Origin: Cryobacterium sp.
GTDB lineage: Bacteria; Actinomycetota; Actinomycetes; Actinomycetales; Microbacteriaceae
Direction: 5' to 3'
Assembly (NCBI GenBank): GCA_019638975.1
Contig: JAHBST010000001.1
Location: 19,619 to 83,618, forward strand
DNA length: 64,000 nucleotides
The notes under the pieces are model-generated. The model was given only the letters and a program-made list of their open reading frames with translations, was not told the DNA's origin and searched no databases. Below, in pieces: positions 8,832-48,651 of the stretch. Made by a program: the position numbers and the translations under genes. The stretch's first letter is position 1, and each line of letters opens with the position of its first letter.

Positions 8832-8860
8832 CCACCACAAACCTCAACGAAAGGCGCATC

Positions 8861-11141: not shown

Positions 11142-11183
11142 GGCTGAACGTGTCGGCAGAAATGGTTTCCGCTCGCCCGTCCT

Positions 11184-11948
11184 TCATCGATTCAGCTCGA
11201 GTCGTTGCCAACTGACGGTCGTGAGAACAACGGCGAGCGCGGCGAGCGGGAGCACGAGAAGCAACTGGATGCCGGAAACGTCGGCGCCACCACTCGCCGC
11301 CCACAGGCCAGGGGCAGACAGGGTGAACCAGCCGCCGGCTCCCGAAATGACCGCGACTTGCGCAGCGACGAGAATTCCGATCACGGCGCCGATACCGGCG
11401 ATGATCGACCGGGCCAGAGTCGCCACCCATGCGACGGGCACCGCGATGGCACCGGTCAACACGGCGAGACCCACTTGCCGGGCTGCGGCGGGTACGAGGT
11501 CGAGCGGGATGGGTCCGAGGCCGAAAATCACACCGGCGAGCAGTAGCGCGGCAAGCAACGCCACACTCGACCCGGCGCACCACACCGCGTAGACCGTGAG
11601 TTTCGCGAGGGCGATTGTCGAGCGGCGGATGGGAAGCGCGAAGAGCCCCGTGATCGCACCGTCGGTGAACTCGCGGCCGAACATCCAACTCAGGACGACT
11701 CCGAACCCCAGGAGCGCGGCGGCGGCAGTGACTTGCGCTGCGGTCGCCAAGTATCCTTCCCACCCGCCCGGATCAATGAGCGGTCCGAGTTTCGCCGCGA
11801 GCCCCGCATCGGTGGTGTTCACGGCGAGGAGCATCGACGAACACATGAGCGCGATCCCGATCACGAGAAGCGCGGTCGTCGTACGGACGAGAGTTGCACG
11901 CGCCAGCTTCGACCATTCCGTCACGAGTGCGGGAATCATGCCGCGCAC
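11184..11948 (-). CDS. ABC transporter permease (ABC-2 type)
   Basis: A 254-residue integral membrane protein with about six hydrophobic segments, beginning with L-V-R-T-T-T-A-L-L-V-I-G-I-A-L-M near residue 20. It is the membrane partner of the ATP-binding protein encoded just upstream, whose last 13 nt overlap its start. Together with the TetR gene these form a three-gene operon of the regulator-controlled exporter type. The substrate is unknown; lipids, peptides or drugs are all possible. The C-terminal Q-R-L-E-L-N-R is probably cytoplasmic. Confidence 0.85.
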   Translation of the reverse strand: MRGMIPALVTEWSKLARATLVRTTTALLVIGIALMCSSMLLAVNTTDAGLAAKLGPLIDPGGWEGYLATAAQVTAAAALLGFGVVLSWMFGREFTDGAITGLFALPIRRSTIALAKLTVYAVWCAGSSVALLAALLLAGVIFGLGPIPLDLVPAAARQVGLAVLTGAIAVPVAWVATLARSIIAGIGAVIGILVAAQVAVISGAGGWFTLSAPGLWAASGGADVSGIQLLLVLPLAALAVVLTTVSWQRLELNR

Positions 11949-12682
11949 TCCCCGCTGCCAGGGGCCGACACCCTAGCGCCGTCGTCATCGTGAACGAGCT
12001 CGAAGAAGGAGCGCTCGATATCGATTCCTTTCGGATCGAGGCTGCCGATGATGCGACCGTGATTCAGGACCGAGATCCGATTCGCGATCCTCGCGACCTC
12101 GTCAAGATGATGGCTGCTCACGAGCACACCGGCACCCCGGGCAACGCTTGCGAGAAGGCGTTCCCTGAGCAGGATGACGCCGTTCGGGTCGAGCGCGTTC
12201 GTCGGCTCATCGAGCACGATGACGCGAGGGTCATGCTGAAGGGCAGATGCCAGTCCGAGCCGCTGGCGGTTGCCGAGTGACAGCTTTCTCGACGGACGGT
12301 TCACAGAGGGCTCGAGGGCGAAGTCTCGAACGATGTTTTCGACCACGGCCGGGATTCGCCGTGCCGGGATCCGGTGCAACCGAGCGCCAAGCTCCAGGTT
12401 GCGTCGAACGGTGAGCTCTCCGTACGCGAGCGGATATTCCACGAGGTGCCCGACCGACCCCCAGTCCGTTTCCGCGATGGAACGCCCGAGAATTCTCACG
12501 CTTCCGCTGCGGGGTCGCAGCATCCCGAGGAGAAGCCGCATGAGCGTCGACTTGCCGGCACCGTTCAACCCCACGAGAGCGTGGACTTCCCCTTGCTCCA
12601 CATCGATGTCCACTCCCCTCACACCCGCGGTTTCATCGAACATCCGCTCAACCGAGCGCGCTTCAATCGCGAGCTCAGCCAT
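11936..12682 (-). CDS. ABC transporter ATP-binding protein
   Basis: A 248-residue ATPase subunit with Walker A G-L-N-G-A-G-K-S-T, an ABC signature reading L-S-L-G-N-R-Q-R-L-G (a mild variant of LSGGQ), Walker B V-I-V-L-D-E-P-T-N-A-L and the switch histidine in V-S-S-H-H-L-D-E. The frame is open upstream to 12790 inside the TetR gene, but the ATG at 12682 fits the family start and overlaps the TetR stop by 8 nt, indicating translational coupling. It energises the permease at 11184-11948. Confidence 0.93.
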   Translation of the reverse strand: MAELAIEARSVERMFDETAGVRGVDIDVEQGEVHALVGLNGAGKSTLMRLLLGMLRPRSGSVRILGRSIAETDWGSVGHLVEYPLAYGELTVRRNLELGARLHRIPARRIPAVVENIVRDFALEPSVNRPSRKLSLGNRQRLGLASALQHDPRVIVLDEPTNALDPNGVILLRERLLASVARGAGVLVSSHHLDEVARIANRISVLNHGRIIGSLDPKGIDIERSFFELVHDDDGARVSAPGSGECAA

Positions 12683-13229
12683 GATTGGCCTCGAGAATGT
12701 CGAGCGCGCCGAGGATCGCGCTGCTGAGGGATTCGTCTTCCGCCATGCTCCAGTCGAGCAACGCCGCGTTGAGAGCGCCCAGCACAGCACCGGCGACCAC
12801 GCGAGAGGTTCGGTCGGAAATCAGTCCGGAAGAGAGGGCTTCCGCAATGACGGCTTCCGTGGCCGTCGAGTTCTTTCCGAGAGCGGAGTGCAACGCGGGC
12901 GTGGAGGCCACGATGCGGAGTCGGGTGCGAAGGTCCTCTTCGGCCCCGTCCGGCAGTCGGGACCACACGGCCCGGATGCCGCGGACAGCGCGCACGAATG
13001 GCGGCAGCATGTCAGGTTGTCGCGCGATCGCTTCGCCGATTTCCGGATCGAACGGATCGTCGATGAGAACGGACTCTTTCGACGGAAAGTGCCGAAAGAA
13101 GGTCATCTCAGACACGCCCGCGGTCGAGGCGATGAGTGCGACGCTCGTCGCCTCATACCCGAATTGCGCAAACAGCCTCACAGCGGTGGCGCGAAGATTC
13201 TCGCGCGTCCGCTCAATCTTGGTGGTCAT
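12675..13229 (-). CDS. TetR/AcrR family repressor
   Basis: A 184-residue regulator with an N-terminal TetR helix-turn-helix (R-L-F-A-Q-F-G-Y-E-A-T-S-V through S-E-M-T-F-F-R-H-F-P-S-K-E) and an all-helical ligand domain. First gene of the exporter operon; a perfect 17-bp palindrome lies 7 nt upstream of its start and is the expected operator. Classic arrangement for self-regulated, ligand-relieved export. Confidence 0.93.
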   Translation of the reverse strand: MTTKIERTRENLRATAVRLFAQFGYEATSVALIASTAGVSEMTFFRHFPSKESVLIDDPFDPEIGEAIARQPDMLPPFVRAVRGIRAVWSRLPDGAEEDLRTRLRIVASTPALHSALGKNSTATEAVIAEALSSGLISDRTSRVVAGAVLGALNAALLDWSMAEDESLSSAILGALDILEANHG

Positions 13230-31287: not shown

Positions 31288-31653
31288 CTACTCGAGTTCG
31301 GCCCGCAAGGATGACACGAGTCGCTCGAATTCGGCGGGTGCCGCCTCGATAACCCGCCGGCTCACCCAGCGGCCGATCCGGTGGCCGGTTTCCGCGACGT
31401 TCACGAGCGCGTGTTCGAGAGTTGAGCCGGAATCGTCGGGAACGACGCGATATTCCGCGCGATACCACCATCCGCCCTGAACGATGACGAGCCAGGCGCT
31501 CGAGTCTGCCGTGAAGAGGCTCTCTGCGCCGGAACCAGGATCGAAGCGCCGCTCGAGTGAATCGAAAATCGCTCGCGGGCGAGCGGTGAAGTGAGCGTGA
31601 AACTCGTGGAGCACGATCGCGTGAGCGGGCCTTTCCCGGGGAGCTTCAGGCAT
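31288..31653 (-). CDS. SRPBCC-like polyketide cyclase family protein
   Basis: A 121-residue protein opening H-A-I-V-L-H-E-F-H-A-H-F-T-A-R-P, with W-W-Y-R-A-E-Y-R-V-V-P-D-D-S-G-S-T-L in the middle and a long C-terminal helix. The pattern fits a small SRPBCC fold, but the similarity is weak. The ATG at 31653 overlaps the glgP stop by 8 nt, so it is translated after glgP; the frame extends upstream to 31824 inside glgP and that extension is rejected. Function unknown. Confidence 0.7.
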   Translation of the reverse strand: MPEAPRERPAHAIVLHEFHAHFTARPRAIFDSLERRFDPGSGAESLFTADSSAWLVIVQGGWWYRAEYRVVPDDSGSTLEHALVNVAETGHRIGRWVSRRVIEAAPAEFERLVSSLRAELE

Positions 31654-34243
31654 GATCGGAACCGACGGCGGTCGCGACAAGACCGAGCTCTGCATCGCTC
31701 GTGAGACCGGGGTGCCGGGGAACGACGCGAACGGTGTAACCGAAGCTTCCAGCGCTCGCGAGGCGAACCGTCCCGGCGAACTGCACCATGCCCGCAGCGC
31801 CGGATTCGACAGCCCCCGTGTCATCCGGAGTGAGTTCCAATCGTTCCGGCGAAATCAGTTCGTCATTGGAATGAGCCGGTCCGTACAGCAATTCGACGAG
31901 AACGTCGTCGAGCGACAATCCGTCGAGCTGGACTTTCGCGCGGACATGAAGCTCCTCGCCGACTTCCGGAACGGAGTCGACTCCCCCGGATTCGACGTAT
32001 CCGACGCTCACCCGGGGCCACGCCTCGACGATCTTCGCTTTCCATGCCGCGAGTTCCCGTGCCCCGCGGTAGTCGTCGAGCGCGAGCGTCGTCGCGGAAT
32101 CCGCTGCGGGGATGTACAAGCGTTCGACGTACTCCCGGACCATCCGATCAGCGCTCAAGGCCGGCGAAAGCGTCGCGAGAGTGTGACGGATCGACTCGAC
32201 CCAGCGCGTCGGCACTCCCGTCTCGTCGCGATCGTAAAATCTCGGAGCGACCTGATGTTCGATGAGGTCGTACAACGCGGATGCCTCAAGTTCATCGCGT
32301 TCGGCAGAGTCTCCCGCCGCGTCCGCACTCGGGATCGCCCAGCCGTTTTCTCCGTCGAAGAACTCTGCCCACCAGCCATCGAGGATCGACAGATTGAGGG
32401 ATCCGTTCATGGCAGCCTTCATGCCGCTCGTGCCACACGCCTCGAGCGGGCGCAAGGGATTGTTGAGCCATACGTCGGTGCCCGGGTACAGCACTTGCGC
32501 CATGCCGATGTCGTAGTTGGGCAGAAACACCAGACGACCCCGGATCGCGGGTTCGTTCGCGAACCTGACAAGGCGCTGGATGAGCCGCTTCCCCTCATCG
32601 TCGGCGGGGTGGGACTTCCCCGCGACGACGATTTGCACGGGCCGTTCCGGATCGCACAGGATCGACCGAAGCCGATCCTCGTCGTGGAGCATGAGTGTCA
32701 GTCGCTTGTAGGTGGGCACTCGGCGCGCGAATCCGATCGTGAGCACGTGCGGATCCAGCAAGGAGTCGTACCAGACAGGAGGTTGCGCGTTCGCGTGCTG
32801 ATTCCGCCATGCAGCCGCCATCCGGGCGCGGGCATCGTGCACAAGTTTTCCCCGAAGCTCGGTACGGAGGTTCCAGATGTCGGCATCGCTGACGGAATCG
32901 GAAAGCCAGTCGCACGACGTCGTGTCGTGTGTTCCGAGTTTGTCGGCCGCGAGCCGAGACACGGATCGATCCGTCCACGTGGCAGCGTGAACTCCGTTCG
33001 TCACCGACGTGATGGGAACTTCGTTGCTGTCGAAGCCCGGCCACAGCGCGCCGAACATCCGTCGGCTGACTTCGCCGTGCAATCGCGAAACCCCATTCGC
33101 CCTTTGCGCGAGCCGCAACCCCATCACCGCCATGTTGAACGTGTCCTCAACACCGCCGTCATAGTCTTCTGCGCCGAGCGCCAGGACATCAGCCACGTCC
33201 ACTCCCGGCAAGAGGTCGGTCGAGAAATACCGTTCGACGAGGTCTGCGTCGAATCGATCGATTCCCGCGGCCACCGGAGTGTGGGTCGTGAACACGGTTC
33301 CCGCCCGCACGACCTCGAGTGCTTCGTGGAAGTTCATTCCCGCGGCGATCAGTTCCCGGATTCGTTCGACGCCGAGAAAGCCGGCGTGCCCTTCGTTGGT
33401 GTGGAAGATCACGGGTGCGGGAGAGTTGTTCAATTGCGAATACAGGGAAATCGCGCGGACGCCGCCGATTCCAAGAAGAAGCTCCTGAAGCAAACGGTGC
33501 TCGCCGCCTCCCCCATAAAGCCGATCGGTCACCGAACGCAATTCATCGTCGTTTTCGGGGATGTCGGTATCGAGCAGCAAAAGCGAGACCCGGCCGACCG
33601 AGACGTGCCAGATTCTCGCGTACAGAACTCCGCTGTCGGGGAGAGCGAGCGCGATGTGCGCCGCGGATCCGTCTGGCTGTCGCACCACCGTGAGGGGCAG
33701 CCCGTCGGGGTCCAGCACCGGATACGACTCCTGTTGCCAGCCGTCGCTCGAGATTGACTGGGCGAAATACCCTGAACGGTAGAACAGTCCGGCAGCGATA
33801 ATCGGAACGCCAAGATCCGATGCGCTCTTCAAGTGGTCGCCCGCGAGAATTCCGAGTCCCCCCGAATACTGCGGCAAAGCGGTTGCCACGCCGAACTCGG
33901 GGGAAAGGTACGCGATCGACGCCGGAACGTCCTCTCCGAGCGACTGATACCAACGCGGTTCGGTGAGATATTCGTGGAGGTCGTTCGCGAGAGCATTCGC
34001 CCGGCCGAGGAATTCGCTGTCCGCCGCGAGCTCGGCGATGCGTCGTTCATCGAGAGTTCCGAGCACGGCGATCGGATCGTGCCCGGTTGCTTCCCACTGA
34101 CCGGGTGAAAGCTGCTCGAACAATTCCCGCGTCGGCACATGCCACGACCAGCGCAGATTCGTGGCCAACTCGTCCAGGACTCCGAGGGAATCCGGGAGAA
34201 CCGGCTGCACGCTGAATCGTCTGATCGCTTTCACGGGAATCAA
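31646..34243 (-). CDS. glgP: Alpha-glucan phosphorylase
   Basis: Releases glucose-1-phosphate from alpha-1,4-glucans with PLP as cofactor. The 865-residue product is the long actinobacterial form with an N-terminal extra domain (V-L-D-E-L-A-T-N-L-R-W-S-W-H), the Y-L-S-P-E-F-G and Y-S-G-G-L-G-I-L-A-G-D-H segments, and the PLP-lysine motif A-C-G-T-S-G-M-K-A-A-M-N-G in the C-terminal part. It is 31 nt downstream of the sipW-like gene on the same strand and overlaps the small SRPBCC gene. GlgE and GlgB are encoded 4.6 kb away on the other strand. Confidence 0.95.
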   Translation of the reverse strand: MIPVKAIRRFSVQPVLPDSLGVLDELATNLRWSWHVPTRELFEQLSPGQWEATGHDPIAVLGTLDERRIAELAADSEFLGRANALANDLHEYLTEPRWYQSLGEDVPASIAYLSPEFGVATALPQYSGGLGILAGDHLKSASDLGVPIIAAGLFYRSGYFAQSISSDGWQQESYPVLDPDGLPLTVVRQPDGSAAHIALALPDSGVLYARIWHVSVGRVSLLLLDTDIPENDDELRSVTDRLYGGGGEHRLLQELLLGIGGVRAISLYSQLNNSPAPVIFHTNEGHAGFLGVERIRELIAAGMNFHEALEVVRAGTVFTTHTPVAAGIDRFDADLVERYFSTDLLPGVDVADVLALGAEDYDGGVEDTFNMAVMGLRLAQRANGVSRLHGEVSRRMFGALWPGFDSNEVPITSVTNGVHAATWTDRSVSRLAADKLGTHDTTSCDWLSDSVSDADIWNLRTELRGKLVHDARARMAAAWRNQHANAQPPVWYDSLLDPHVLTIGFARRVPTYKRLTLMLHDEDRLRSILCDPERPVQIVVAGKSHPADDEGKRLIQRLVRFANEPAIRGRLVFLPNYDIGMAQVLYPGTDVWLNNPLRPLEACGTSGMKAAMNGSLNLSILDGWWAEFFDGENGWAIPSADAAGDSAERDELEASALYDLIEHQVAPRFYDRDETGVPTRWVESIRHTLATLSPALSADRMVREYVERLYIPAADSATTLALDDYRGARELAAWKAKIVEAWPRVSVGYVESGGVDSVPEVGEELHVRAKVQLDGLSLDDVLVELLYGPAHSNDELISPERLELTPDDTGAVESGAAGMVQFAGTVRLASAGSFGYTVRVVPRHPGLTSDAELGLVATAVGSDHA

Positions 34244-34274: not shown

Positions 34275-34904
34275 TCAAGCGTCGGGAGTCGAGCTCATCC
34301 CCTGCGACGCGGCCGGAATGCTTGCGTTGCCTGCCTTTTCGCCTCGCTTGCGTTTGGCGGCCGAAGCGATCGAGCTCGCGACGGCGTAGCCCGCGTACAG
34401 AAATAAACCGCCCGCAAGCACGGGGACGACCCATCCGCGATTCTCGCCACCGACGAAAGTGTTGACCCATCCGAGATACGGGATGCTGTACCAGACTTCG
34501 CCGCGAATCTGGACAGGCAGGACTGGCGCTTCATCCGCCGCGCCGTTGGCATCCCCCTTCAGGGTGAAGCTTGTCTTGCCGTTCGACGAGTGGGTGATCG
34601 CGATGACGCGGTGAGTGACGAATACGTCCTTGCCGGACTCCAGTTGGTAGGTGATCGGCATGCCGATCCGGATCGCCTCCGGCTCGATCGGTCGCACGAT
34701 GACGAGGGTTCCCGGCGGATACGCGGGCTTCATCGAATTCGTGAGGATCGTCATCGGCGTCGAACCCGTGACGGCCGGCACGAGGATCGCGAGAACCCCC
34801 ACGAGAACGACGAGAGCGAGCAACCCGGCGCTGATCCCCCAGCCGAGGTAGTACAGAAGTCCCCTGGCCTTGCGTTCAGGCTCGGCCCGACGACGTCCAC
34901 TCAT
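34275..34904 (-). CDS. SipW-like signal peptidase I (ER/archaeal type)
   Basis: A 209-residue membrane peptidase. One N-terminal helix (L-L-A-L-V-V-L-V-G-V-L-A-I-L, about 28-43) precedes the nucleophile Ser57 in T-N-S-M-K-P. The base is His98 (T-H-R-V-I), as in SipW and eukaryotic signal peptidases, instead of the lysine of ordinary bacterial enzymes, and G-D-A-N-G-A-A-D (117-124) supplies the acidic residue. A second helix lies at about 158-182. Such enzymes process the special signal peptides of TasA/camelysin-type proteins, three of which are encoded in the same operon. Its start overlaps the wall-anchored protein's stop by 4 nt. Confidence 0.92.
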   Translation of the reverse strand: MSGRRRAEPERKARGLLYYLGWGISAGLLALVVLVGVLAILVPAVTGSTPMTILTNSMKPAYPPGTLVIVRPIEPEAIRIGMPITYQLESGKDVFVTHRVIAITHSSNGKTSFTLKGDANGAADEAPVLPVQIRGEVWYSIPYLGWVNTFVGGENRGWVVPVLAGGLFLYAGYAVASSIASAAKRKRGEKAGNASIPAASQGMSSTPDA

Positions 34905-35614
34905 TCTCGCGGCTCCTTGCGTCGCCTCGCGGCAACGACGAAGAAGAGTCCCACGCCGATTACCGAGGCTGCCCCAATGATAAGGGCGATCGGCGGCTCA
35001 GCCCCGGTCATTGCGAGCGGAATCGTTCCTCCGCCGCCCGACACCGGGATCGTGACTCCCGAGCTGCATACTGTGGGGGGCACGCTGCCGACGACCGCGT
35101 CGCTCAGCGAAATCTGGAACGAAAACGTCGCCGTCGCATCCTGACCCGTGCGACCGCTGAGGTCTCCGAGCGCGAGATTTGCGGAAACTTTGACGACCCC
35201 TCCGGGTGGGACGAGCTCGCCTTCCGTCAGCACGCGACACGGTTGCGCATCCGCGAGAGTCGCGGATGAACCGGGGTAGCTCGTGGTCCCGGCGGATACG
35301 GTCAGAGCGTGCGCGAGAACGGGGTCGGAGACCGTCACGTTCGACAGCGACACTCGCAGGAATCCTGCGGCCGAACTCGCATTGCGCACAAACAGATCCA
35401 CTGCCTGACTGTCGCCCGGCACGGTGACGGTGATCTGGTTGAACAACGCGGTGGGCAGGCTCGACGTAAACGTCACGCCGTCCCGACTCACTTGAATTTC
35501 CGTGGACGCGGATGCCGGCCCCACCGCTCCCCCGAGCATGATGGCGAGGATTGCGGCGCCGGTCGCCGCAATCCTGACCGCACGCGCGGAGAGCCTCGAG
35601 TCCAGGTTTCGCAT
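34901..35614 (-). CDS. Wall-anchored surface protein with LAMTG sorting signal
   Basis: A 237-residue protein with a standard signal peptide (hydrophobic I-A-A-T-G-A-A-I-L-A-I-M-L-G-G-A, cleavage likely after A-S-A near 46), a beta-rich domain of about 150 residues, a glycine-rich turn, and a C-terminal sorting signal: L-A-M-T-G (about 200-204), a hydrophobic helix and R-R-R-K-E-P-R-E. LAxTG is the type read by class E sortases in actinobacteria; no sortase is encoded in the window. The ATG at 35614 shares one base with the upstream TGA. It probably anchors the fibre proteins encoded upstream. Confidence 0.82.
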   Translation of the reverse strand: MRNLDSRLSARAVRIAATGAAILAIMLGGAVGPASASTEIQVSRDGVTFTSSLPTALFNQITVTVPGDSQAVDLFVRNASSAAGFLRVSLSNVTVSDPVLAHALTVSAGTTSYPGSSATLADAQPCRVLTEGELVPPGGVVKVSANLALGDLSGRTGQDATATFSFQISLSDAVVGSVPPTVCSSGVTIPVSGGGGTIPLAMTGAEPPIALIIGAASVIGVGLFFVVAARRRKEPRE

Positions 35615-37332
35615 CACTGACACTTGACGTAGGTGTATTGGAAGATCCAGACGCCTCCCGTGGCGACCACCACTTGGGATGTCCCGAGGACGGAGCCCGA
35701 CGAGTTCACCGCCTGCACGGGGTAGGTGCCATCGCTGAGGTTGAAGGGAGGATTGCCGCTGATCGTCGCCGATCCGGTATAGAACGTCCCGTTGTTCATG
35801 TCCGCCCACGTCGTCGCGTTGGTCCGCACTTGAAGCTTGTAGCTTTGCGGCGCCGACGGCGTGAACGAGTAAATCACCGTCTGGTTGGAACCCGATCCCG
35901 TGTTCGTGCATTGAAGGGTCGCGGGCGCCGAGCAGCTCAGGGAAGTGACACCACTCGTGGTCGACCGCCAGAGTCCGCTCGTTGCGAGCTGATTGCTGAG
36001 CCACATGGCACGCACATCGTACTTTCCATCCGCGCCGGTCAGGGCAGAAGGAAGAATGGTGATGGAACTCGCGCCAGCGGTCGCGTCACCCACGCCGGCC
36101 CACGTGCTGCCAGCGCTTGGCTTCGCCTGGAAATTGTAGGTGTCGATCGCCGCGCCACTCCACGAATACGTGACGCCGCCCCCGGCAGCCGAAGCGCACG
36201 ACAGCGTCATGGCCGGAACGTCCACGTCCTTCGTCGTGAGCGAGTACCGCTGGTTCGCCGACCCGTCGCACACCGCTTGGGCGTATTCGACCTCCGGATT
36301 GTAGACGCTCGTATTGTTCGGCTGGAGGCACAATCCGCTGTTGCGGTTGACGATCTGGTAGAAGCTGCCCGCTTGCTTCTGCAATTGCCATTCCTGGCTC
36401 ACGCGGGAGCCGTTGTCGGTTTCGAGGTCGACGGCGGCGAGCGCCGCTGTCGAGCTGCCCGCAACGTCAAGTCGCACGGCTTGAGCATGCCGTGGCGTCA
36501 TGTCGTAGTAGTTTCCGCTCGATCGCGTGAACTTCCACTCCTGGTTGTAGTCCCCCGTGGCATTGCCGGGCTTGCACGCGTAGTCGATTGCACCCGTGCC
36601 GCTCGCCGAGTTGGCGCCATACACGTCGAGGCAATTCAACGTGCCCTGATTCACGATTTGATACCACGTGTTCGGAGTCGGACCGAACGCGGGAAAAATC
36701 CATGCGGTCTTCTGGGTCGCCGTCGCGCTCGCGGATTGCGACCAATTTCCCACTGTGAGCGAAGCGGAAATGCTCGGCTGGATGGTCAGGGCACCCGCTG
36801 TTGCCGCGAGGTCGCCTCGCTCAGCGGCGCTCACGCGGATGCAATAGCTCGCGGTCGCGTTCTTGGCGAGGGTACCGGTGATCGGTGACCCCGTCGTTGC
36901 AACGGTGTCCCAATAACCCGAGATCGCTCCGCTCGGCGGCGTTCCGACCGCCGCGCAACCTCCCGTGTTGGTCGTGGACCAAATGGTCACGGCGAGCTTT
37001 GCGGCGAGCGCGGCATCCCCGGTATAGCCCAGCGACATCGTGAAGGTTCCCGGGGTCGAACTCGAGGTAACCGTGTTGTTCGTGAGAGTGACGCTTCCGG
37101 TTGTCTTCAACAGGTGATTTTGGAAGGTGAAAGCGTTCGAGTTGAACCCGGAAGTGGAGATCCCCAGAGTCGCGGCGCTCGCGGTGCTCGATGCCGTCGC
37201 ACCGGTAGTCCAGGCGGCATAGCTCGCCGTCCCGCCGATGAGGAGAAGGAACACAGCCACACCGGCGATGATTCCGTGTCGCGCGGACCGGAACGAAGGC
37301 CGACGGGGTTCGGTCTTGCGGTGGGCGCCCAT
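35614..37332 (-). CDS. SipW-type exported protein with ricin-like lectin and Ig/Fn3-like domains
   Basis: A 572-residue secreted protein. Residues 1-20 are basic; the hydrophobic helix at about 21-35 leads into G-G-T-A-S-Y-A-A-W, the SipW-type signal motif. Residues 40-205 form a camelysin/TasA-like beta domain (T-G-S-V-T-L-T-N-N-T-V). Residues 210-366 are a ricin-type beta-trefoil with repeats beginning W-Y-Q-I-V-N and F-Y-Q-I-V-N and Q-x-W-type ends (Q-E-W at 264 and 313, Q-R-Y at 361). Two further Ig/Fn3-like modules follow (about 375-470 and 472-560). A carbohydrate-binding tip or adhesin is likely. The ATG at 37332 lies 2 nt from the upstream stop. Confidence 0.85.
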   Translation of the reverse strand: MGAHRKTEPRRPSFRSARHGIIAGVAVFLLLIGGTASYAAWTTGATASSTASAATLGISTSGFNSNAFTFQNHLLKTTGSVTLTNNTVTSSSTPGTFTMSLGYTGDAALAAKLAVTIWSTTNTGGCAAVGTPPSGAISGYWDTVATTGSPITGTLAKNATASYCIRVSAAERGDLAATAGALTIQPSISASLTVGNWSQSASATATQKTAWIFPAFGPTPNTWYQIVNQGTLNCLDVYGANSASGTGAIDYACKPGNATGDYNQEWKFTRSSGNYYDMTPRHAQAVRLDVAGSSTAALAAVDLETDNGSRVSQEWQLQKQAGSFYQIVNRNSGLCLQPNNTSVYNPEVEYAQAVCDGSANQRYSLTTKDVDVPAMTLSCASAAGGGVTYSWSGAAIDTYNFQAKPSAGSTWAGVGDATAGASSITILPSALTGADGKYDVRAMWLSNQLATSGLWRSTTSGVTSLSCSAPATLQCTNTGSGSNQTVIYSFTPSAPQSYKLQVRTNATTWADMNNGTFYTGSATISGNPPFNLSDGTYPVQAVNSSGSVLGTSQVVVATGGVWIFQYTYVKCQ

Positions 37333-37334
37333 GA

Positions 37335-37889
37335 TCAGGTGCCCGTGGTCGACGTAAATGTGATCGTGAAGCTCTGGTTCGTCCCTTGCGCGCCCGACGG
37401 TGCGCTCGCGGGCATCGTCACTTGAACACAGACAAGCGACTGTTCGGACGCCGTGAACACTCCGAGGTTCGTCGGGGACACGGTCGAACTCGCACCGCTG
37501 ATCGTCGCCCCGCACGCGCCCTTCTTCAGATGAACCAGGAGAGGCCCGAATCCACCCGTTGTCAGGGCCGTGACGGTTCCGGACACGTTGCCGGTGTTCT
37601 TCACCGTGACTTGCTGTGAGACGACGTCTCCGGGAAGAAGCTTTGCCCACGCGGTGCCGTCGACCGCTGCGCTGGATGCGCCGTTGACGGTCAATCCCAT
37701 GGTGCCCGTCGTGATCGTCGCATTCGGGATGCTGCGAGCGCCGTTCCAGAGAGCGTACGTACCGCCGGCAGCGAAGGCGGCAATGACGCTGGCGCCCGCG
37801 ATCGCTGCTGTGGAGGCGAGCATGCCCCTAATGACGGGCCGCGGTGCGGTCGTAGCGCGGTGTCGCGGCTTCGTAGTTCTGGTGGGCAT
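37335..37889 (-). CDS. TasA/camelysin-like protein with SipW-type signal peptide
   Basis: A 184-residue exported protein. A basic N-terminus of about 20 residues is followed by a helix (M-L-A-S-T-A-A-I-A-G-A-S-V-I-A-A-F) ending in A-G-G-T-Y-A-L-W-N-G, the alternate signal motif cleaved by SipW-like peptidases. The mature part of about 140 residues is beta-rich and Thr/Ser/Gly-rich, with the family-typical V-T-V-K-N-T-G-N-V-S-G-T-V segment and two cysteines (G-A-C-G, L-V-C-V) that could form a disulfide. Likely a fibre subunit or its minor partner. It is separated by 85 nt from the first gene of the operon. Confidence 0.85.
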   Translation of the reverse strand: MPTRTTKPRHRATTAPRPVIRGMLASTAAIAGASVIAAFAAGGTYALWNGARSIPNATITTGTMGLTVNGASSAAVDGTAWAKLLPGDVVSQQVTVKNTGNVSGTVTALTTGGFGPLLVHLKKGACGATISGASSTVSPTNLGVFTASEQSLVCVQVTMPASAPSGAQGTNQSFTITFTSTTGT

Positions 37890-37974
37890 GATTCACCTCC
37901 TCACGAGGATCGGTTGTCGGAAAAGCCCGGAGTGGGTGCCCCGCCTGGGTGGAGGCGGGGCACCCCGGGGAACA

Positions 37975-38481
37975 TCAGAGGTGCTGGTCTACGCGGAAGG
38001 CCAGGCCGGTCAGGTTGATCGTCTTGCCTTGCGTCGCGTTGAGCGAGGTCGACTTGAACGCAGCCGTGACCTTGACGGGAAGGACGTACGTTCCCGCCGC
38101 GGCGATGTTGTACGTTCCGTCGCCGTTGCTCGTGACGTTGGCCGGGAGGGTCCCGGTGACCGTCAGCGTAATCGTGACATCGGCGATCAGCCCTGCGTCG
38201 CCCGTGATGCTCGACGGGTCAACCGAAAGGGTTCCCTTGATGTGGTCGCCGACGGCGGTCACGGAGACGCTCGCGGTGTACTCGTACGAGTCGCCCGGAA
38301 CCCAGTTCGTGGGAGCCGTGTTCCAGGTACCGGCAGTGGCGGTCATCGTCAGCGTTCCGGTGTTGATCGATCCGGCGTTGACGGTGTCCGTTGCGTTCCA
38401 GAGGGCGAGCGAGCCCGCACCTCCGAGAAGAAGAGCGATACCGGCGGCGCCGGCGATCGCAGCTTTGGTGAGCTTGTTCAT
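37975..38481 (-). CDS. TasA/camelysin-like protein with SipW-type signal peptide, first gene of the operon
   Basis: A 168-residue exported protein. M-N-K-L-T-K-A-A-I-A-G-A-A-G-I-A-L-L-L-G leads into G-G-A-G-S-L-A-L-W-N, the alternate signal motif. The mature part of about 138 residues alternates Thr/Val strands (G-T-L-T-M-T-A-T-A-G, A-S-V-S-V-T-A-V-G-D) and has no cysteine. Its place at the head of the operon and small size suit a major fibre subunit. The ATG at 38481 has AGGAC at 5-nt spacing; the frame stays open upstream (another ATG at 38559), but that extension would mask the signal peptide. Confidence 0.85.
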   Translation of the reverse strand: MNKLTKAAIAGAAGIALLLGGAGSLALWNATDTVNAGSINTGTLTMTATAGTWNTAPTNWVPGDSYEYTASVSVTAVGDHIKGTLSVDPSSITGDAGLIADVTITLTVTGTLPANVTSNGDGTYNIAAAGTYVLPVKVTAAFKSTSLNATQGKTINLTGLAFRVDQHL

Positions 38482-38812: not shown

Positions 38813-40822
38813 GTGAGCCCTGATTACCAGCCGACCTCGAGTCGGATACCGCAACGGCTGGTGTCGCCCCGACAGCCGACGGATCGATTTCCCCCGAAAG
38901 CCTGGGTCGGAGAAGTCGTGCCGTTCCGCGCTACCGTCTTCGCCGAAGGGCATGATTCACTGGGAGTCGAACTCGACCTCACTTCCCCCGCCAGCGCATC
39001 CGCTCGTCATCGCATGGAGCTGCGCTCGCCCGGCCTCGACTTGTGGGAAGCCCTCGTTCTCGTCGACGAACCCGGAATCTGGTCGTTTCGAATTCTCGCG
39101 TGGAAGGACGATTGGTCGACGTGGCTGCGGTCCGCGGAACTGAAGATTCCGGCTGGCGTGGATACCGAGCTGACCTTCGACGAGGGTGCAGCGCTGCTTG
39201 CGCGCGCCAGGTCCGCTGCCAAATCCTCGTCGTCGATTCGATTGATCGCTCGCGCGCTCGCCGTGCTCACGGATACCGCCTTGCCCGACTCGGAGCGACT
39301 CGCGATCGCGCGCGAAGAGGAACTCGAAAGGGCGCTTCGCGATCATCCGCTCGCCTCTCTGGAGACGACGGGAGAGCCACACGCGCTGCGCGTCGAACGG
39401 ACACGCGCTGGCGTCGGTAGCTGGTACGAGTTCTTCCCGCGATCGGAAGGGGCCAAGCGAAACAAGGACGGCACGTGGACGAGCGGAACGTTCGCGACCG
39501 CAGCGCGACGCTTGCCCGCCATCGCCGAGATGGGTTTCGACGTCGTCTACCTTCCGCCCATCCATCCGATCGGATCGAGCTTCCGCAAAGGCGCCAACAA
39601 CGCCCTGACCGCTGCGAAGCACGAACCAGGGTCCCCGTGGGCGATCGGCTCCCCCGCGGGCGGCCACGACGCCATCCACCCCGACCTCGGGACCGTCGCG
39701 GACTTCACGGCATTTCTGGCCGCGGCGAAGAAGAACTCCCTCGAGGTCGCGATCGATCTCGCTCTTCAATGCTCGCCCGACCATCCGTGGGTTTCCGAGC
39801 ATCCCGAGTGGTTCGCACATCGCGTCGATGGCACGATCGCGTTCGCGGAGAATCCGCCCAAAAAGTATCAGGACATCTACCCGCTCTCTTTCGACAACGA
39901 CGAAGCCGGCTTGCGCGCGGAGATTCTGCGCATCGTCCACTACTGGATTTCCGTGGGCGTGAAAATCTTCCGAGTCGACAATCCGCACACCAAACCGCTC
40001 CGATTCTGGGAATGGCTGCTCCACGAGGTCGCGCTCACGGACCCTGATGTCGTGTTTCTCGCCGAAGCGTTCACACGACCAGCCCCGCTTCACGCGCTCG
40101 CCGAAATCGGATTCCAGCAGTCCTACACCTATTTCACCTGGCGGAACACGAAGCCGGAACTCGAAGAGTATCTCACCGAGCTTTCCCACGATTCCAGCGA
40201 CTTCCTGCGGCCCAATCTGTTCGTGAACACACCCGACATCCTTACCGAATACCTCCAGTTCGGCGGAGTTCCCGCATACCGGATTCGCGCCGCAATCGCG
40301 GCAACCGCAAGTCCGAGCTGGGGGGTGTATTCCGGATACGAGTTGTTCGAGAACATCGCGCGCGACGGATCCGAAGAGAACATCGACAACGAGAAATACG
40401 AATACCGGCCGCGCGATTGGGCGAAGGCCGCTCGGAACGGGTCGACTCTCGCGCCGTACTTGCGCCAACTCAATCGAATCCGATCGGAACACCCGGCCTT
40501 GCGCCAATTGAAGAATCTCGCGGTGCACTGGAGCGACGATCCCGCGATCCTCGTGTACAGCAAGTTCCTCGAGAGCCGATTCACGGGCACCGGGCGCGAC
40601 GACGCCGTCATTGTCGTCGCCAACGTCGATCCGCATTCGGTTCGCGAAACGACCGTGCACCTCGATCTGGAGAGAATCGGTCTAGACGCCGAGGCACGAT
40701 TTGCCGTCACCGATCTGCTGACCGGCGAAAGCTTCGACTGGACTCGAGACAATTACGTTCGGCTCGATGCCTTCACCGCGCCGGTGCACATCCTTTCGGT
40801 GGAAGCGGCGGAGGCACGCTGA
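38813..40822 (+). CDS. glgE: Alpha-1,4-glucan:maltose-1-phosphate maltosyltransferase
   Basis: Extends alpha-glucan by transferring maltosyl units from maltose-1-phosphate. The 669-residue GH13_3 protein has an N-terminal beta domain, a catalytic barrel with the diagnostic [11 protein letters not shown] segment, the nucleophile region [10 protein letters not shown] and the acid E in F-L-A-E-A-F-T-R-P. The GTG at 38813 is the start. The stop overlaps the glgB start by 1 nt (TGATG). No treS or pep2 gene is in the window, so the source of maltose-1-phosphate is encoded elsewhere. Confidence 0.95.
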
Positions 40823-42996
40823 TGTCGCCGGCAAAGGCGGTCGACGCAGTCACCGAGGAGGAGCTTGCGGCGATTGCGGGGGGCCGCCACCCCGAACCGC
40901 ACTCTATTCTTGGGCAGCATGCTCGGGGCAGCGGTTGGGTGATCAGGGCGCGCCGACCGCTTGCCGCATCCGTGACGGCGATCCGCGCGAACGGTACGCG
41001 CATTCCCCTCCGCCACGTCTCGAGCGGCATTTGGCAGGGGACCGCTCGCGGGAGGGGCCAGCCCTATGTTCTCGAAACGACTTATGAATCCGGGCCCGAC
41101 TGGATTGCGGACGATCCCTACCGCTTCGTCCCGTCCATCGGAGAAGTCGATCTTTACCTTTTCGGCGAAGGGCGCCACGAGAAACTGTGGGATGCGCTCG
41201 GTGCTCACGCGAGACAGCACGAAGGCGTCGACGGCACCTCGTTCACCGTGTGGGCTCCGCACGCCCGCGCCGCCAGAGTCGTCGGCGATTTCAACAATTG
41301 GGACGGCACGGGAAGTGCCATGCGCCGGCTGGACGACAACGGCGTCTGGGAGCTCTTCCTTCCCGACGTCCGGCCGGGTGCCGCCTACAAATTCGAACTA
41401 CTGACGGCCGCGGGCAACTGGGTTCTTCGCGCGGATCCGATGGCGAGGCACTCCGAAATCCCGCCCGCCACGGCATCCCGGGTCACCGCGAGCGGATATG
41501 AATGGGCAGACTCCGACTGGATGAGCGATCGCGCCGGACGGGACCCGCTCACGAATCCGATGAGCGTCTTCGAAGTTCACGCCGGCTCATGGCGACCGGG
41601 ACTTGGCTACCGCGACCTTGCGACGGAACTCGTGGACTACGTTCGCGAACTCGGCTACACGCACGTCGAATTCCTGCCCCTCGCCGAGCATCCCTTTGGC
41701 GGATCCTGGGGATATCAGGTCACGGGCTACTACGCGCCAACCAGCCGATTCGGGGACCCCGACGACCTCCGGTACCTCATCGATCGACTACACGCGGCGG
41801 GCATCGGCGTCATCATGGACTGGGTCCCCGCACATTTCCCCAAAGATGAGTGGGCGCTCGCACGGTTCGACGGGGAAACTCTGTACGAGCACGGAGATCC
41901 ACAGCGCGGTGAACAACACGACTGGGGGACGCTCATCTTCGATTTCGGGCGATCCCAGGTTCGAAATTTTCTCGTCGCGAACGCCCTGTACTGGTTCGAC
42001 GAATTCCACGTGGACGGATTGCGAGTGGACGCCGTGGCGTCCATGCTGTACCTCGACTATTCGAAGAACGCCGGGGAGTGGACACCGAACAAATTCGGGG
42101 GCCGCGAGAACCTCGAAGCGATCGACCTTCTGAAGGAAGTCAACGCGACCGTCTACAAGCATCATCCGGGAATCGTGATGATCGCGGAAGAGTCGACGGC
42201 CTTCGCGGGAGTGACAGCGCCGACGAGCGCGGACGGGCTCGGCTTCGGACTCAAGTGGAACATGGGTTGGATGCACGACACCCTGCAATTCATGGCCGTC
42301 GATCCGCTGTACCGATCGCACCACCATGGAGAGCTCACGTTCAGCCTCGTGTACGCGTTCAGCGAGAATTTCCTGCTTCCCATCAGCCACGACGAAGTCG
42401 TTCACGGCAAAGGCTCGCTGCTGCAAAAAATGCCGGGAGACCAGTGGCAAAAGCTCGCGAACGTGCGAGCGTACCTCGCGTACCAATGGGCTCATCCCGG
42501 CAAGCAGCTTCTCTTCATGGGCCAGGAGTTCGGCCAGCCGTCGGAGTGGAGCGAGGAGCGCGGGCTCGATTGGTGGATTCTCGATCAGCCCGTCCATCGC
42601 GGCCTGCTCACCCTCGTGTCCCGCCTGAACCGCACTTATCGTGAGACGCCCGCGCTCTGGCAGCTCGACCACGAGTCGCGCGGGTTTCAATGGATCATCG
42701 GTGACGACAGCCGCAACAATGTGATCGCGTTCCTCCGCTGGACTTTCGACGGGGACCCGATCGCGGTCGTCATCAACTTCTCGGGGAACCCCGTCGGGCC
42801 GTATCGGATCGGGCTCCCCCGATTCGGCGAGTGGGTCGAGCTCCTGAACACGGACGCGATCGAGTTCGGCGGTTCCGGCGTGGGGAACCTCGGATCGATC
42901 ACGGCGGACGGGCCACCGCACAATGGCCAGCCGAATTCCGCGGAGATCACCCTTCCGCCTCTCGCCGCTTTGTGGCTCGCGCCGGCGCGGCTGTAG
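40822..42996 (+). CDS. glgB: 1,4-alpha-glucan branching enzyme
   Basis: Introduces alpha-1,6 branches into linear glucan made by GlgE or glycogen synthase. The 724-residue GH13_9 product has an N-terminal CBM48-like module ([19 protein letters not shown]), the catalytic nucleophile in [12 protein letters not shown], the acid in [10 protein letters not shown], and the S-H-D-E-V-V-H-G-K region. The frame is open upstream inside glgE; the ATG at 40822 is chosen for its 1-nt overlap with the glgE stop and normal length. Confidence 0.96.
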
Positions 42997-45993: not shown

Positions 45994-47583
45994 GTGGCAA
46001 CCGACGACGAGGCCTTTTCTACCGCGATGCGCGGGTACAACCGCGAAGAAGTGGACAACGCCCTCCAGGATTTGCGCCATGCCCTCAATAAAGCCAATAG
46101 CGACAAGGCGGAAAACGCAAAAGAGCTCAAGAGGCTGTCGGCACTCGTCGCGGACCTGCAGGCCGAGATCGACGAAATCGGAAGCCCGACCTACACGGGG
46201 CTCGGAACACGACTGGAGAACGTCCTTCGCGTCGCCGAAGAGCAATCGACTCGCCTGATCAGCCAGGCCGACATCGACGCGGAAAAACTCCGCAACAGCG
46301 TTCAGGGCGAAGTGAGCGCGTTGCGCGTGAACGCGATGGAGGAAGCGGACCGCATTATCGCGGACGCTAAAGCGAAGGCATCCGACACGCTCGATTCCGC
46401 TCGCGCGGAAGCCGAAGCTCTCTTGTCGCGCAGCACCGCCCAGGCCAAAGCGACGAATCAGGATGCGCTGAAAGAAGCAGCCTCGATCCGCGGCGCTGCG
46501 GCGACCGACGCTGCGGAGGCGAGGGCGACGGCCAAGCGCGAAGCAGCAGCAGCGCGCGCAGAAGCGGAACGGTATGCGGCGGAGCTTCGAGCGGCCGTCG
46601 TGGAGGAGACCACGCAAGCGAGCGAAGCGGCCGCGTCGCTCGCCCGGGATACTGAAAAGAATCGCAAGGAATTTGCGGCGGAGACCGAGAAGCAGTGGGG
46701 CGATCTCGCCCGCGATGTGGAACAGCAGCGGACAGATGCCGAGCGAGAGGTGCAGGCGACGCACGCGCAGCTTGCCGCCGAAGTGGAAAAAGCCCGAGCC
46801 GACCTCGACCGCGAACTTTCCGACGCCCGGAGCAAATTCGAGGAAGAAATGGAGGCGGCGCAAAGCAAACTCAAAAACGATACGGCCGCCGCACACTCGA
46901 AACTCGCCCTGGAAACGAAGTCGGCGAAGGCGGAGCTCGCGCGCACCATCCAGGAGGCACGAGCGAAGGTCGACGCCGAGATCGCGGACGCTCGCTCGGG
47001 CCTCGCGACCGACATGGAAAAAGCGCGAACCGACCTGGATCGAGAATTGGAGCAGACTCGCGCAGATTTCACGAACGAAATGGATCGGGCCCGCGCGGAA
47101 CTGGCATCCGAGCTTTCCACGTCGCGAGCGAAACTGAAGGCCGAAGCAAAAACCGCGAGGGCGGCACTCGACACCGAATTGACGACGCGCAGGGACGAAG
47201 CCGAGAAAGAGTACCTCGCGAAGCATCAGGATGCCGTGGCGCAAAATCAGAAATACCTCGAAGAGGCTCGCGCGCAGCTCGCGGAAGCCACGAAACGCGC
47301 GGAGGAGAAGCGTCGAGAAGTCGAGCAATTGGGCGCGGACGCGACGAAGGAAGCCGCCGAGGTGCGCGACGCGGCGAAGAAGCACGCGGCGGAAGTGCTT
47401 GCCAACGCGGAGTCCCGCGCGAAAGCTATGGTCGCCGACGCGGAAAAGCGGACGAACACTCTCGTGTCAGAAGCGGAAGAGCGGCTGGCCAAGATTAGAA
47501 TCGAGCGCGAAGCCGTCGCCGGTTACTTTGGGGCGCTTCGTACTGTTCTCGGCGACGCGGAGAAAGTCGCAGCAGACGAATAA
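45994..47583 (+). CDS. Long coiled-coil protein, DivIVA/Scy-like
   Basis: A 529-residue protein with a DivIVA-like N-terminus (A-M-R-G-Y-N-R-E-E-V-D-N-A-L) and then about 450 residues of Ala/Glu/Lys/Arg-rich coiled coil with almost no proline, ending in a short helix (G-Y-F-G-A-L-R-T-V-L). The build resembles Scy/FilP polar scaffolds of actinobacteria, which organise apical growth, though it is shorter than Scy. The GTG start at 45994 has GGGAGA upstream; an ATG two bases earlier is out of frame. The 289-nt gap to the divergent gene at 45704 holds nothing else recognised. An AI-2E transporter gene follows 18 nt downstream. Confidence 0.82.
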   Translation: MATDDEAFSTAMRGYNREEVDNALQDLRHALNKANSDKAENAKELKRLSALVADLQAEIDEIGSPTYTGLGTRLENVLRVAEEQSTRLISQADIDAEKLRNSVQGEVSALRVNAMEEADRIIADAKAKASDTLDSARAEAEALLSRSTAQAKATNQDALKEAASIRGAAATDAAEARATAKREAAAARAEAERYAAELRAAVVEETTQASEAAASLARDTEKNRKEFAAETEKQWGDLARDVEQQRTDAEREVQATHAQLAAEVEKARADLDRELSDARSKFEEEMEAAQSKLKNDTAAAHSKLALETKSAKAELARTIQEARAKVDAEIADARSGLATDMEKARTDLDRELEQTRADFTNEMDRARAELASELSTSRAKLKAEAKTARAALDTELTTRRDEAEKEYLAKHQDAVAQNQKYLEEARAQLAEATKRAEEKRREVEQLGADATKEAAEVRDAAKKHAAEVLANAESRAKAMVADAEKRTNTLVSEAEERLAKIRIEREAVAGYFGALRTVLGDAEKVAADE

Positions 47584-47601
47584 CACCGGCGAAGGGGCAC
47601 T

Positions 47602-48651
47602 GTGAAGATCCAGAACGCGTTTCGGCTCGGCCTCTTCGGCGGTCTCGGAGTGCTCGTCGCGATCGGCATCGGCGCCGCGATCGGTTCCCTGGCGACGATC
47701 ATCACTTACGTCGGTGCGGCGATCTTCCTCGCGCTGGGTCTCGATCCCGCAGTGTCGTGGCTGGAAAAGCACCGTTTCCCCCGATGGCTTGCCATACTCA
47801 CCGTCGTCGTCCTCGTGCTCGCCGTCTTCACGGGGCTCGTGTTCGCCGTGATCCCGGTCATCGTGGCCCAGACCTCCAATCTCATCAACGGCCTCACACC
47901 GTTGATCGCCGCGCTCGGCGACCAGGACAACAACTGGGTGGCTGCGGTTCAGAAGAATCTTCCCGACTACATCAATCTGCAGGCGATCATCGGCGGCGCG
48001 CTCGAGTTCATCAAGGAGAACATCACCTCGATCGGCGGCGGCGTATTGCAAGTCGGCCTCGGCATCGCCAGCGGAGCTTTCGGAATCATCATCGTCCTGA
48101 TTCTCACGCTGTATTTCGTCGCATCGCTCAACAACATGAAGCGCGGCCTCTACCAGCTCATCCCGGCGACGCGGCGGGCGCGGTTCACGGACATCGCCGA
48201 GCAAATCAGCGACTCGGTCGGCCGGTACGTCGTGGGCCAGGCGACGCTCGCGCTGTTCAACGGCATCCTGAGCTTCATCTACCTCTCGATCGTGAACGCC
48301 GAATACCCTGCGCTTTTCGCGTTCATCGCGTTCCTGTTCTCCCTCGTCCCGCTCGTCGGAACCCTGTCGGGAAGCATCCTCATCACACTCAGCTGCCTCG
48401 TCTTCGACGGCGTGCCGACCGCGCTCGCGGTGGGTATCTACTACATCGTCTATATGCAACTGGAGGCGTACGTCCTCAACCCGAACATCATGAATCGCGC
48501 GGTCAAAGTACCCGGCGTGATCGTCGTGATCGCTGCGCTTGCCGGTGGCACGCTTCTGGGCATTCTCGGGGCGCTCATCGCGATCCCCGTCGCGGCATCC
48601 GTTTTACTCATCATCAACCAGGTCGTCGTGCCGAGGCAGAACGAACTCTGA
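47602..48651 (+). CDS. AI-2E family transporter
   Basis: A 349-residue polytopic protein of the AI-2E (PerM/YdiK) family, with about seven or eight helices. Diagnostic stretches are Y-V-G-A-A-I-F-L-A-L-G-L-D-P near the N-terminus, the V-G-R-Y-V-V-G-Q-A-T-L-A region, and the C-terminal Y-Y-I-V-Y-M-Q-L-E-A-Y-V-L-N-P and G-A-L-I-A-I-P-V-A-A. Members export diverse small molecules or act as cation/proton antiporters; AI-2 itself is not implied. The start is GTG at 47602, 18 nt after the coiled-coil gene, so the two are likely co-transcribed. Confidence 0.93.
   Translation: MKIQNAFRLGLFGGLGVLVAIGIGAAIGSLATIITYVGAAIFLALGLDPAVSWLEKHRFPRWLAILTVVVLVLAVFTGLVFAVIPVIVAQTSNLINGLTPLIAALGDQDNNWVAAVQKNLPDYINLQAIIGGALEFIKENITSIGGGVLQVGLGIASGAFGIIIVLILTLYFVASLNNMKRGLYQLIPATRRARFTDIAEQISDSVGRYVVGQATLALFNGILSFIYLSIVNAEYPALFAFIAFLFSLVPLVGTLSGSILITLSCLVFDGVPTALAVGIYYIVYMQLEAYVLNPNIMNRAVKVPGVIVVIAALAGGTLLGILGALIAIPVAASVLLIINQVVVPRQNEL

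What the first reader, a model, noticed from the sequence alone, without database searches (positions are those of the whole stretch)
34275..38481. Self-contained surface-fibre operon: two TasA-like subunits, a lectin, a LAMTG anchor and a SipW-like peptidase
Five minus-strand genes, with 4-nt, 1-nt and 2-nt junctions and one 85-nt gap, encode everything a wall-attached fibre would need: two small beta-rich proteins with alternate signal peptides, a large lectin-bearing protein of the same export type, one wall-anchored protein and the dedicated signal peptidase. SipW-cognate proteins are known in Firmicutes (TasA) and alternate-signal proteins are known in actinobacteria; this combination with a ricin-type lectin and a sorting-signal anchor looks like a little-described assembly system.
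Basis: partly seen in the sequence, partly recalled or inferred. Interest (0 to 1): 0.82.

Follow-up and report, generated by a model that had tools for sequence, protein, structure and literature searches.

The report
Conserved SipW surface-fibre operon with lectin
An actinobacterium carries a compact five-gene cassette, shared with many of its relatives, that probably builds a sticky protein fibre on the cell surface from TasA-like subunits, a sugar-binding protein and a membrane or wall anchor; no fibre has yet been seen.

Summary
It is not a one-off: in 57 of the 60 best SipW loci from Microbacteriaceae genomes a TIGR04089-type subunit gene lies upstream of the peptidase on the same strand. 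The usual order is subunit 1, subunit 2, large SipW-type protein (ricin lectin in 23 of 39 scanned), tailed anchor, SipW. It behaves as a movable cassette: 18 of 56 copies lie between glgE and glgP; eight SipW-free genomes have glgE and glgP side by side. Subunit 1 looks like the major product: strongest codon bias in 21 of 27 operons, and a GC-rich hairpin right after it far more often than controls. Its AlphaFold model's best PDB hit is the TasA fibre (E 1.9e-4, but TM only 0.39). Subunit 2 scores as camelysin/TasA. LAMTG fits the only sortase found (class E), but strict LPxTG/LAxTG occurs in 9 of 27 orthologues; a C-terminal membrane stretch in all 27. Best reading: an actinobacterial relative of the TasA/CalY/BsaA fibre systems with a lectin adhesin and an anchored base. 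Fibre, adhesin position and donor strands are inferred.

The parts
37975..38481 (-). g1: small SipW-type subunit, proposed major shaft subunit (168 aa)
   Evidence: TIGR04089 116 bits, TIGR04088 29.9 bits; 26 of 26 aligned relatives match TIGR04089; AlphaFold beta-sandwich, best PDB hit TasA fibre 8aur; highest codon adaptation of the five in 21 of 27 operons
37934..37965 (-). 13-bp GC-rich hairpin 9 nt after the g1 stop codon, proposed attenuator or message protector
   Evidence: enriched after g1 in relatives, 24 of 56 with a perfect stem of 10 bp or more
37335..37889 (-). g2: second small SipW-type protein of camelysin/TasA family (184 aa)
   Evidence: PF12389 27.4 bits over cut-off 22.5; 15 of 26 relatives match PF12389 at E 0.01; AlphaFold model poor
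35614..37332 (-). g3: large SipW-type protein with ricin-type lectin, proposed adhesin (572 aa)
   Evidence: PF14200 and PF00652 over cut-off; A-x-W signal end in 24 of 27 orthologues; lectin in 23 of 39
34901..35614 (-). g4: anchor protein, ordinary signal peptide, LAMTG, C-terminal hydrophobic stretch, basic tail (237 aa)
   Evidence: sequence; NF058582 25.2 bits, just under cut-off 27; profile link to g2, 94.1%
34275..34904 (-). g5: SipW-like signal peptidase (209 aa)
   Evidence: TIGR02228 73.3 bits over cut-off 51.85; the Bacillus SipW model NF046067 matches at 65.8, under its cut-off 190; S57, H98, D118, D124 in columns conserved in at least 96% of 27 copies
31646..34210 (-). glgP, downstream flank and insertion-site landmark
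   Evidence: PF11897 and PF00343
38918..40822 (+). glgE, divergent upstream flank and insertion-site landmark
   Evidence: PF11896 and PF21702

Best explanation
The operon makes a thin, non-covalent surface fibre of the TasA/camelysin kind. g1, made in excess because a hairpin after its gene limits read-through or protects its message, is the shaft subunit. g2 is a minor shaft or adaptor subunit. g3 carries the lectin and sits at or along the fibre as adhesin. g4, held by its C-terminal membrane stretch and here probably joined to the wall by the class E sortase at LAMTG, is the base. g5 cleaves the alternate signal peptides of g1, g2 and g3, while g4 leaves by the ordinary signal peptidase; cleavage frees a new N-terminal segment that inserts as a donor strand into the next subunit. 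Shown: genes, families, conservation, movement as a unit, hairpin and codon-bias enrichment. Inferred: cleavage by g5, donor strands, the fibre itself, the place of each subunit, wall attachment and glycan binding.
For: Families over cut-off for g1, g2, g3, g5. Conserved gene order: 57 of 60 loci with g1 upstream of g5; 28 loci, 27 without a duplicate, with exactly five same-strand genes. g1 model best hit TasA fibre 8aur, E 1.9e-4, probability 1.00, with chaperone-usher pilins and an archaeal bundling pilus among the weaker hits, E 0.01-0.08. Profile links g2-g4 94.1%, g2-g3 84.6%, g1-g2 81.8% against at most 1.3% in 31 of 32 control comparisons, the other being g3 with its own lectin region. 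A-x-W/F signal end in g1 27 of 27, g3 24 of 27, g4 3 of 27. Hairpin and codon bias after and in g1. A class E sortase in the genome, the class that uses LAXTG (PMC5148588, passages). Parallels: predicted terminator after bsaA with short and read-through messages in C. perfringens (PMC7395162, passages); two camelysins in one operon with SipW in B. cereus (PMC10151520, passages); TasA-CalY heterofilaments with wall-located CapP (PMC13082335, abstract, outline and passages).
Against: No fibre has been seen. The g1 model has mean pLDDT 65.8 and its match to 8aur has TM 0.39/0.31 and rmsd 12.8; ranks 3-6 and many later hits are unrelated beta-sandwich proteins. The g2 model (pLDDT 56.2) has no hit under E 0.001 and none of the 50 listed is TasA. 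The g1 profile finds no TasA in the PDB by sequence, the g4 profile none among the 60 of 79 hits shown, the g2 profile only at E 0.49-0.56. g1-g4, g1-g3 and g3-g4 are not linked directly (16.7%, 0.4%, 1.1%). g2 meets the strict A-x-W/F test in only 13 of 27. No 10-bp stem after g1 in 32 of 56 loci, and no U-run in the window. Sorting signal not conserved.
Confidence: 0.55

Rival explanations
1. The proteins are exported and held at the surface but make an unordered matrix or coat, not fibres: monomeric or aggregated beta-sandwich proteins plus a lectin that binds the cell's own or foreign glycans.
For: Fold match of g1 is loose; g2 model poor; surface proteins with beta-sandwich folds are common; in B. 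cereus CalY is also described as a surface adhesin in early stationary phase (PMC13082335, passages).
Against: Best PDB hit of g1 is a fibre subunit in fibre form; g1 looks like the most strongly expressed member, as expected for a polymer subunit; dedicated SipW and two small subunits as in known fibre operons.
Confidence: 0.28
2. A sortase-assembled pilus of the SpaA kind, with subunits joined covalently.
For: A sorting signal on g4 and weak Foldseek hits of g1 to the RrgB pilus backbone, E 0.02-0.07.
Against: The only PF04203 match in the genome, 89.9% complete, is a class E sortase; class C scores 34.5 against a cut-off of 160. g1, g2 and g3 have no C-terminal sorting signal.
Confidence: 0.03
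3. g2 is a secreted metalloprotease (camelysin) and the operon a protease export unit.
For: PF12389 is named camelysin metallo-endopeptidase.
Against: The g2 sequence has no HExxH (motif recalled); TasA homologues are themselves called camelysins (PMC10151520, passages).
Confidence: 0.02
4. The operon works with the flanking glycogen genes, for example in handling or sensing glucan at the surface.
For: 18 of 56 copies lie between glgE and glgP.
Against: 30 of 56 copies have neither in the expected flank; glgE and glgP sit together without it in eight SipW-free genomes; the glg products are cytoplasmic (recalled).
Confidence: 0.04

Closest known systems
Bacillus subtilis tapA-sipW-tasA matrix fibre operon
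   Same: SipW-type peptidase with its substrates in one operon; TasA is the best fold hit of g1; TapA is an accessory thought to anchor and start fibres (PMC9674648, passages), a role proposed here for g4
   Different: No lectin protein or sorting signal is mentioned in the passages seen; here there are two small subunits, a large lectin protein and a tailed anchor; g5 is under the cut-off of the Bacillus SipW model
Bacillus cereus sipW-calY1-bc1280-calY2 (TasA, CalY, CapP)
   Same: Two camelysins plus a further secreted protein and SipW in one operon (PMC10151520, passages); TasA and CalY co-assemble, CapP sits at the cell wall (PMC13082335, abstract and passages)
   Different: CapP has a DUF4047 domain and repeats and works without sortase; here the extra proteins are a lectin and a LAMTG/membrane-tail protein with no DUF4047 match
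Clostridium perfringens sipW-bsaABCRSD
   Same: SipW with polymer-forming BsaA and a predicted terminator after bsaA giving a short and a read-through message (PMC7395162, passages); g2 matches the BsaA model weakly, 19.3 bits
   Different: g2 is far under the BsaA cut-off of 60; no lectin or two-component genes in the same arrangement
NCBIfam TIGR04089 / TIGR04088 (alternate-type, SipW-dependent signal peptide proteins)
   Same: g1 is a full member of both, over both cut-offs
   Different: The models name only the export type; they give no operon, structure or function
Archaeal bundling pili (AbpA, AbpX)
   Same: Among the weak hits of the g1 model (7ueg, E 0.02) and of the g2 profile (AbpX, E 0.055 and 0.14)
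   Different: Not significant matches; the describing paper is not held

Membership tests
TasA/camelysin-SipW fibre systems | SipW-type signal peptidase in the operon | tested here: met
   TIGR02228 73.3 bits over 51.85; Bacillus-specific NF046067 65.8, under 190
TasA/camelysin-SipW fibre systems | Operon substrates with SipW-type signal peptides | tested here: met
   TIGR04088 on g1 29.9 over 19; A-x-W/F end in g1 27 of 27, g2 13 of 27, g3 24 of 27, g4 3 of 27; cleavage itself untested
TasA/camelysin-SipW fibre systems | Subunit with TasA/camelysin fold | tested here: inconclusive
   g2 over PF12389 cut-off; g1 model best hit 8aur E 1.9e-4 but TM 0.39; g2 model no specific hit
[quoted passage not shown]
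   Residues 1-41 of the g1 model are disordered, which fits but does not show it; no multimer prediction on hand
TasA/camelysin-SipW fibre systems | Forms fibres | not testable with these tools
   Needs electron microscopy
TIGR04089 | Score over curated cut-off | tested here: met
   116 against 60
Class E sortase substrate (g4) | LAXTG, hydrophobic stretch, basic tail, and a class E sortase in the genome | tested here: met
   LAMTG tail; class E sortase 248.7 over 160. Curated anchor model NF058582 missed, 25.2 against 27; wall linkage untested
Sortase-assembled (class C) pili | Class C sortase and sorting signal on the shaft subunit | tested here: not met
   Only a class E sortase found; g1 and g2 have no sorting signal
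Ricin-type beta-trefoil lectin (g3) | Score over Pfam cut-off | tested here: met
   PF14200 59.3 over 25.6, PF00652 44.4 over 29; sugar binding untested
Camelysin metallopeptidase activity (g2) | Zinc-protease motif HExxH | tested here: not met
   Absent from the g2 sequence; motif recalled

The most novel reading that the evidence does not exclude
A complete base-shaft-tip pilus built by donor-strand exchange in Gram-positive actinobacteria, needing neither chaperone-usher nor pilus sortase: the three SipW substrates (g1, g2, g3) are the strand donors, the anchor g4, which leaves by an ordinary signal peptide, only accepts, so the dedicated peptidase is the assembly switch, and the third gene is an exchangeable adhesin slot.
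Probability: 0.3. Interest if true: 0.78.

Novelty: new variant of a known kind. Interest (0 to 1): 0.58.

Why it matters
A review seen in passages says TasA fibres have been studied mainly in Bacillus, with related systems widespread and present in archaea (PMC10903470). A conserved, movable actinobacterial cassette that adds an adhesin slot and an anchored base would show how such fibres can be attached to the cell and aimed at surfaces, and would give a function to proteins now named only for their signal peptide. A named, sequenced relative with the same five genes (Terrimesophilobacter mesophilus DSM 19267, L037, peptidase 79% identical) makes it directly testable.

Tried and rejected
Sortase-assembled pilus, metalloprotease and glycogen-linked readings: see rivals. 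Cytotoxin reading of g3: PF03498 reaches 17.4 bits against a cut-off of 22 and no catalytic domain was matched in any of the five proteins; I take it as the shared beta-trefoil shape. The promoter/terminator scan gave no help: 0 promoters (0.7 expected) and 1 terminator-like site, inside g5, against 3.8 expected from shuffles; it did not list the g1 hairpin, which lacks a U-run. One viral-contig scan found no relative of g1, and a plasmid search none. AlphaFold of g2 was uninformative. Solved-structure profile searches of g1 and g4 found no TasA (best 60 of 79 hits shown). The first gene-calling script merged g2 into g3 in the window (also used) and was replaced; counts come from the second, which still over-extends some starts (g1 and g2 of the window).

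Rows dropped: L037 is the same locus as L041 and was dropped. A1, A2 and A3 hold the window plus 25 of the 28 five-gene loci (window row replaced by the true start, L037 and L049 left out). In one search, 17 of 55 loci had no third-gene protein of 285 aa or more that was not a g2 or g4 match and were left out, so 38 plus the window were scanned. Of 73 family genomes without a SipW match, 20 were named and I examined 15.

Papers: passages only for PMC9674648, PMC10903470, PMC7395162, PMC5148588 and PMC10151520; passages, abstract and outline for PMC13082335; all others as search listings.
Full report
What is there. The window holds five minus-strand genes at 34275-38481 with the junctions stated. 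They lie between glgP (31646-34210, minus) and the divergent glgE and glgB (38918-42996, plus). The window comes from an unnamed assembly of 2.04 Mb in 148 contigs, 89.9% complete. The nearest named relative found is Terrimesophilobacter mesophilus DSM 19267, whose peptidase is 79% identical and whose operon has the same five genes.

What the proteins are. g1 is over the cut-offs of TIGR04089 and of the SipW-cognate signal peptide model TIGR04088; g2 is over the cut-off of PF12389, camelysin, although that match includes the signal peptide; g3 has a ricin-type lectin; g5 is a TIGR02228 signal peptidase; g4 ends in LAMTG, a hydrophobic stretch and basic residues, a little under the curated anchor models. 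S57, H98, D118 and D124 of g5 fall in columns that at least 96% of 27 aligned copies share; that these are the residues of a Ser-His type active site is recalled. By a strict motif search the A-x-W/F end of the signal peptide is in g1 27 of 27, g2 13 of 27, g3 24 of 27 and g4 3 of 27. Of the eight g2 misses printed, five read A-Y-L, A-F-L or the like and two have long N-terminal extensions. So the anchor is exported by what looks like an ordinary signal peptide.

Conservation. Of 199 family genomes, 126 match g5 at E 0.001 or better; this includes distant paralogues. I fetched the 60 best loci, in rank order, from 59 genomes. With my own gene caller 53 of 60 have g1 upstream of g5 on the same strand; tblastn adds four (L045, L065, L091, L099), giving 57 of 60. 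Of the other three, two are cut by a contig end (L055, L058) and one shows no g1 (L082). With the window and three named loci, 57 of 64 pass the gene-call test, and 28 of these, 27 without a duplicate, have exactly five same-strand genes. Named genomes of Cellulomonas and Arthrobacter hold the same kinds of part in another order (L038, L040). Across the class, TIGR04089 was found in 27 of 296 genomes, 23 over the cut-off.

A movable cassette. In 18 of 56 loci the operon lies between glgE and glgP; in 8 glgE but not glgP is in the expected flank (three of these have glgP upstream too); in 30 neither is in the expected flank. I examined 15 genomes without a g5 match: 9 have glgP and 12 have glgE. 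In 8 the two are divergent neighbours, with gaps of 168-356 nt in seven and 1011 nt in one (computed from the coordinates), against about 4.7 kb here. So the cassette is gained or lost as a unit at this site and lives elsewhere too.

The variable slot. Identity to the window copy is 32-70% for g1, 25-71% for g2, 27-60% for g4 and 18-67% for g3 in a larger set. Of 39 g3 proteins scanned at E 0.01, 23 match each of the two ricin lectin models, 10 fn3, 8 the below-cut-off CDtoxinA model, 4 a rhamnogalacturonan-lyase sheet domain, 3 DUF11, 3 Big_13 and 1 a cellulose-binding domain, overlaps possible.

The anchor. All 27 g4 orthologues have a C-terminal membrane stretch. A strict L[PA]xTG lies in the last 90 residues of 9 of 27, a looser form in 18 of 27. 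The genome's only PF04203 match is a class E sortase, 248.7 bits over a cut-off of 160, and class E enzymes use LAXTG (PMC5148588, passages). I read the membrane stretch as the general anchor and wall attachment as an option, likely used here.

Major and minor products. Codon adaptation to three translation-related window genes is highest for g1 in 21 of 27 operons. With its true start g1 (0.694) is passed by only two of 61 window genes, both of them reference genes; with the over-extended called start (0.661) it is fifth. The 85-nt gap after g1 folds strongly (-42.5 kcal/mol, z -2.8, 3 of 200 shuffles as good). A perfect stem of 10 bp or more lies within 60 nt after g1 in 24 of 56 loci, against 14 of 178 other same-strand junctions of 60 nt or more, 6 of 81 ends facing the other strand, and 3 of 2800 shuffles; within 90 nt it is 25 of 57 against 103 of 11400 random stretches. 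The stems differ in sequence between loci. C. perfringens makes a short sipW-bsaA message and a long read-through one, with a predicted terminator after bsaA (PMC7395162, passages), a close parallel.

Structure. The g1 model (five aligned sequences, mean pLDDT 65.8, about 78-87 over residues 61-140) is a beta-sandwich with a disordered N-terminus. Its best PDB hit is the TasA fibre 8aur: E 1.9e-4, probability 1.00, but TM 0.39/0.31 and rmsd 12.8. Only two hits pass E 0.001; the second is a fibrillar-adhesin domain, ranks 3-6 are other proteins, and chaperone-usher pilins and the archaeal pilus 7ueg follow at E 0.01-0.08 among unrelated beta-sandwiches. The g2 model is poor, with no hit under E 0.001. 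Profiles of mature regions link g2 with g4 (94.1%), g3 (84.6%) and g1 (81.8%); g1-g4 (16.7%), g3-g4 (1.1%) and g1-g3 (0.4%) are not linked directly. Of 32 control comparisons 31 gave at most 1.3%; the other was g3 with its own lectin region. By sequence, only the g2 profile reaches TasA and AbpX in the PDB, at E 0.055-0.56; g1 does not, and for g4 none is among the 60 of 79 hits shown.

Mechanism. I take g1 as shaft, g2 as minor subunit, g3 as lectin-bearing adhesin, g4 as base and g5 as the peptidase whose cut frees the donor strand. In TasA fibres the N-terminal strand of each subunit completes the next one (PMC9674648, passages). In B. cereus two camelysins co-assemble with the help of a wall-located protein (PMC13082335, abstract and passages). 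Every step after export is inference here.

Literature. None of 5.39 million held papers contains TIGR04089, TIGR04088 or 'alternate-type signal peptide', and of the eight papers that hold any of the five terms asked the two with 'SipW-dependent' are on Bacillus. Twelve papers hold SipW, TasA and Actinobacteria together; going by title and start of abstract none is about such an operon. 'SipW-like' and 'alternate signal-mediated exported' occur in none. Other searches listed only a part of many papers, and their listed rows mostly lacked the key term, so they say little. Subscription journals are mostly missing, among them the archaeal bundling pili paper.

Verdict.

Noticed in passing
L006 (G000:C94:30000-45000), about 4335-8171, minus: A second SipW-type locus in the same genome: a 215-aa protein with an alternate signal peptide, a second TIGR02228 peptidase (65 bits), a protein ending in LAYTG and a 601-aa protein with a similar N-terminus. 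It has no TIGR04089 match and looks like a different system.
   Followed up: partly
L061, about 7400-12800 and the genes just downstream of its peptidase: Two copies of the cassette's surface genes in a row (g1, g2, large protein, g4) around one peptidase.
   Followed up: no
L038 and L040 (Cellulomonas composti, Arthrobacter castelli): Related operons with g1-like, camelysin-like and LAxTG-tailed proteins around SipW but in another order, with a large repeat-type protein upstream.
   Followed up: no
window 45994-47583: High AT skew (0.285 at 46001-48000) over a 529-aa plus-strand gene.
   Followed up: no
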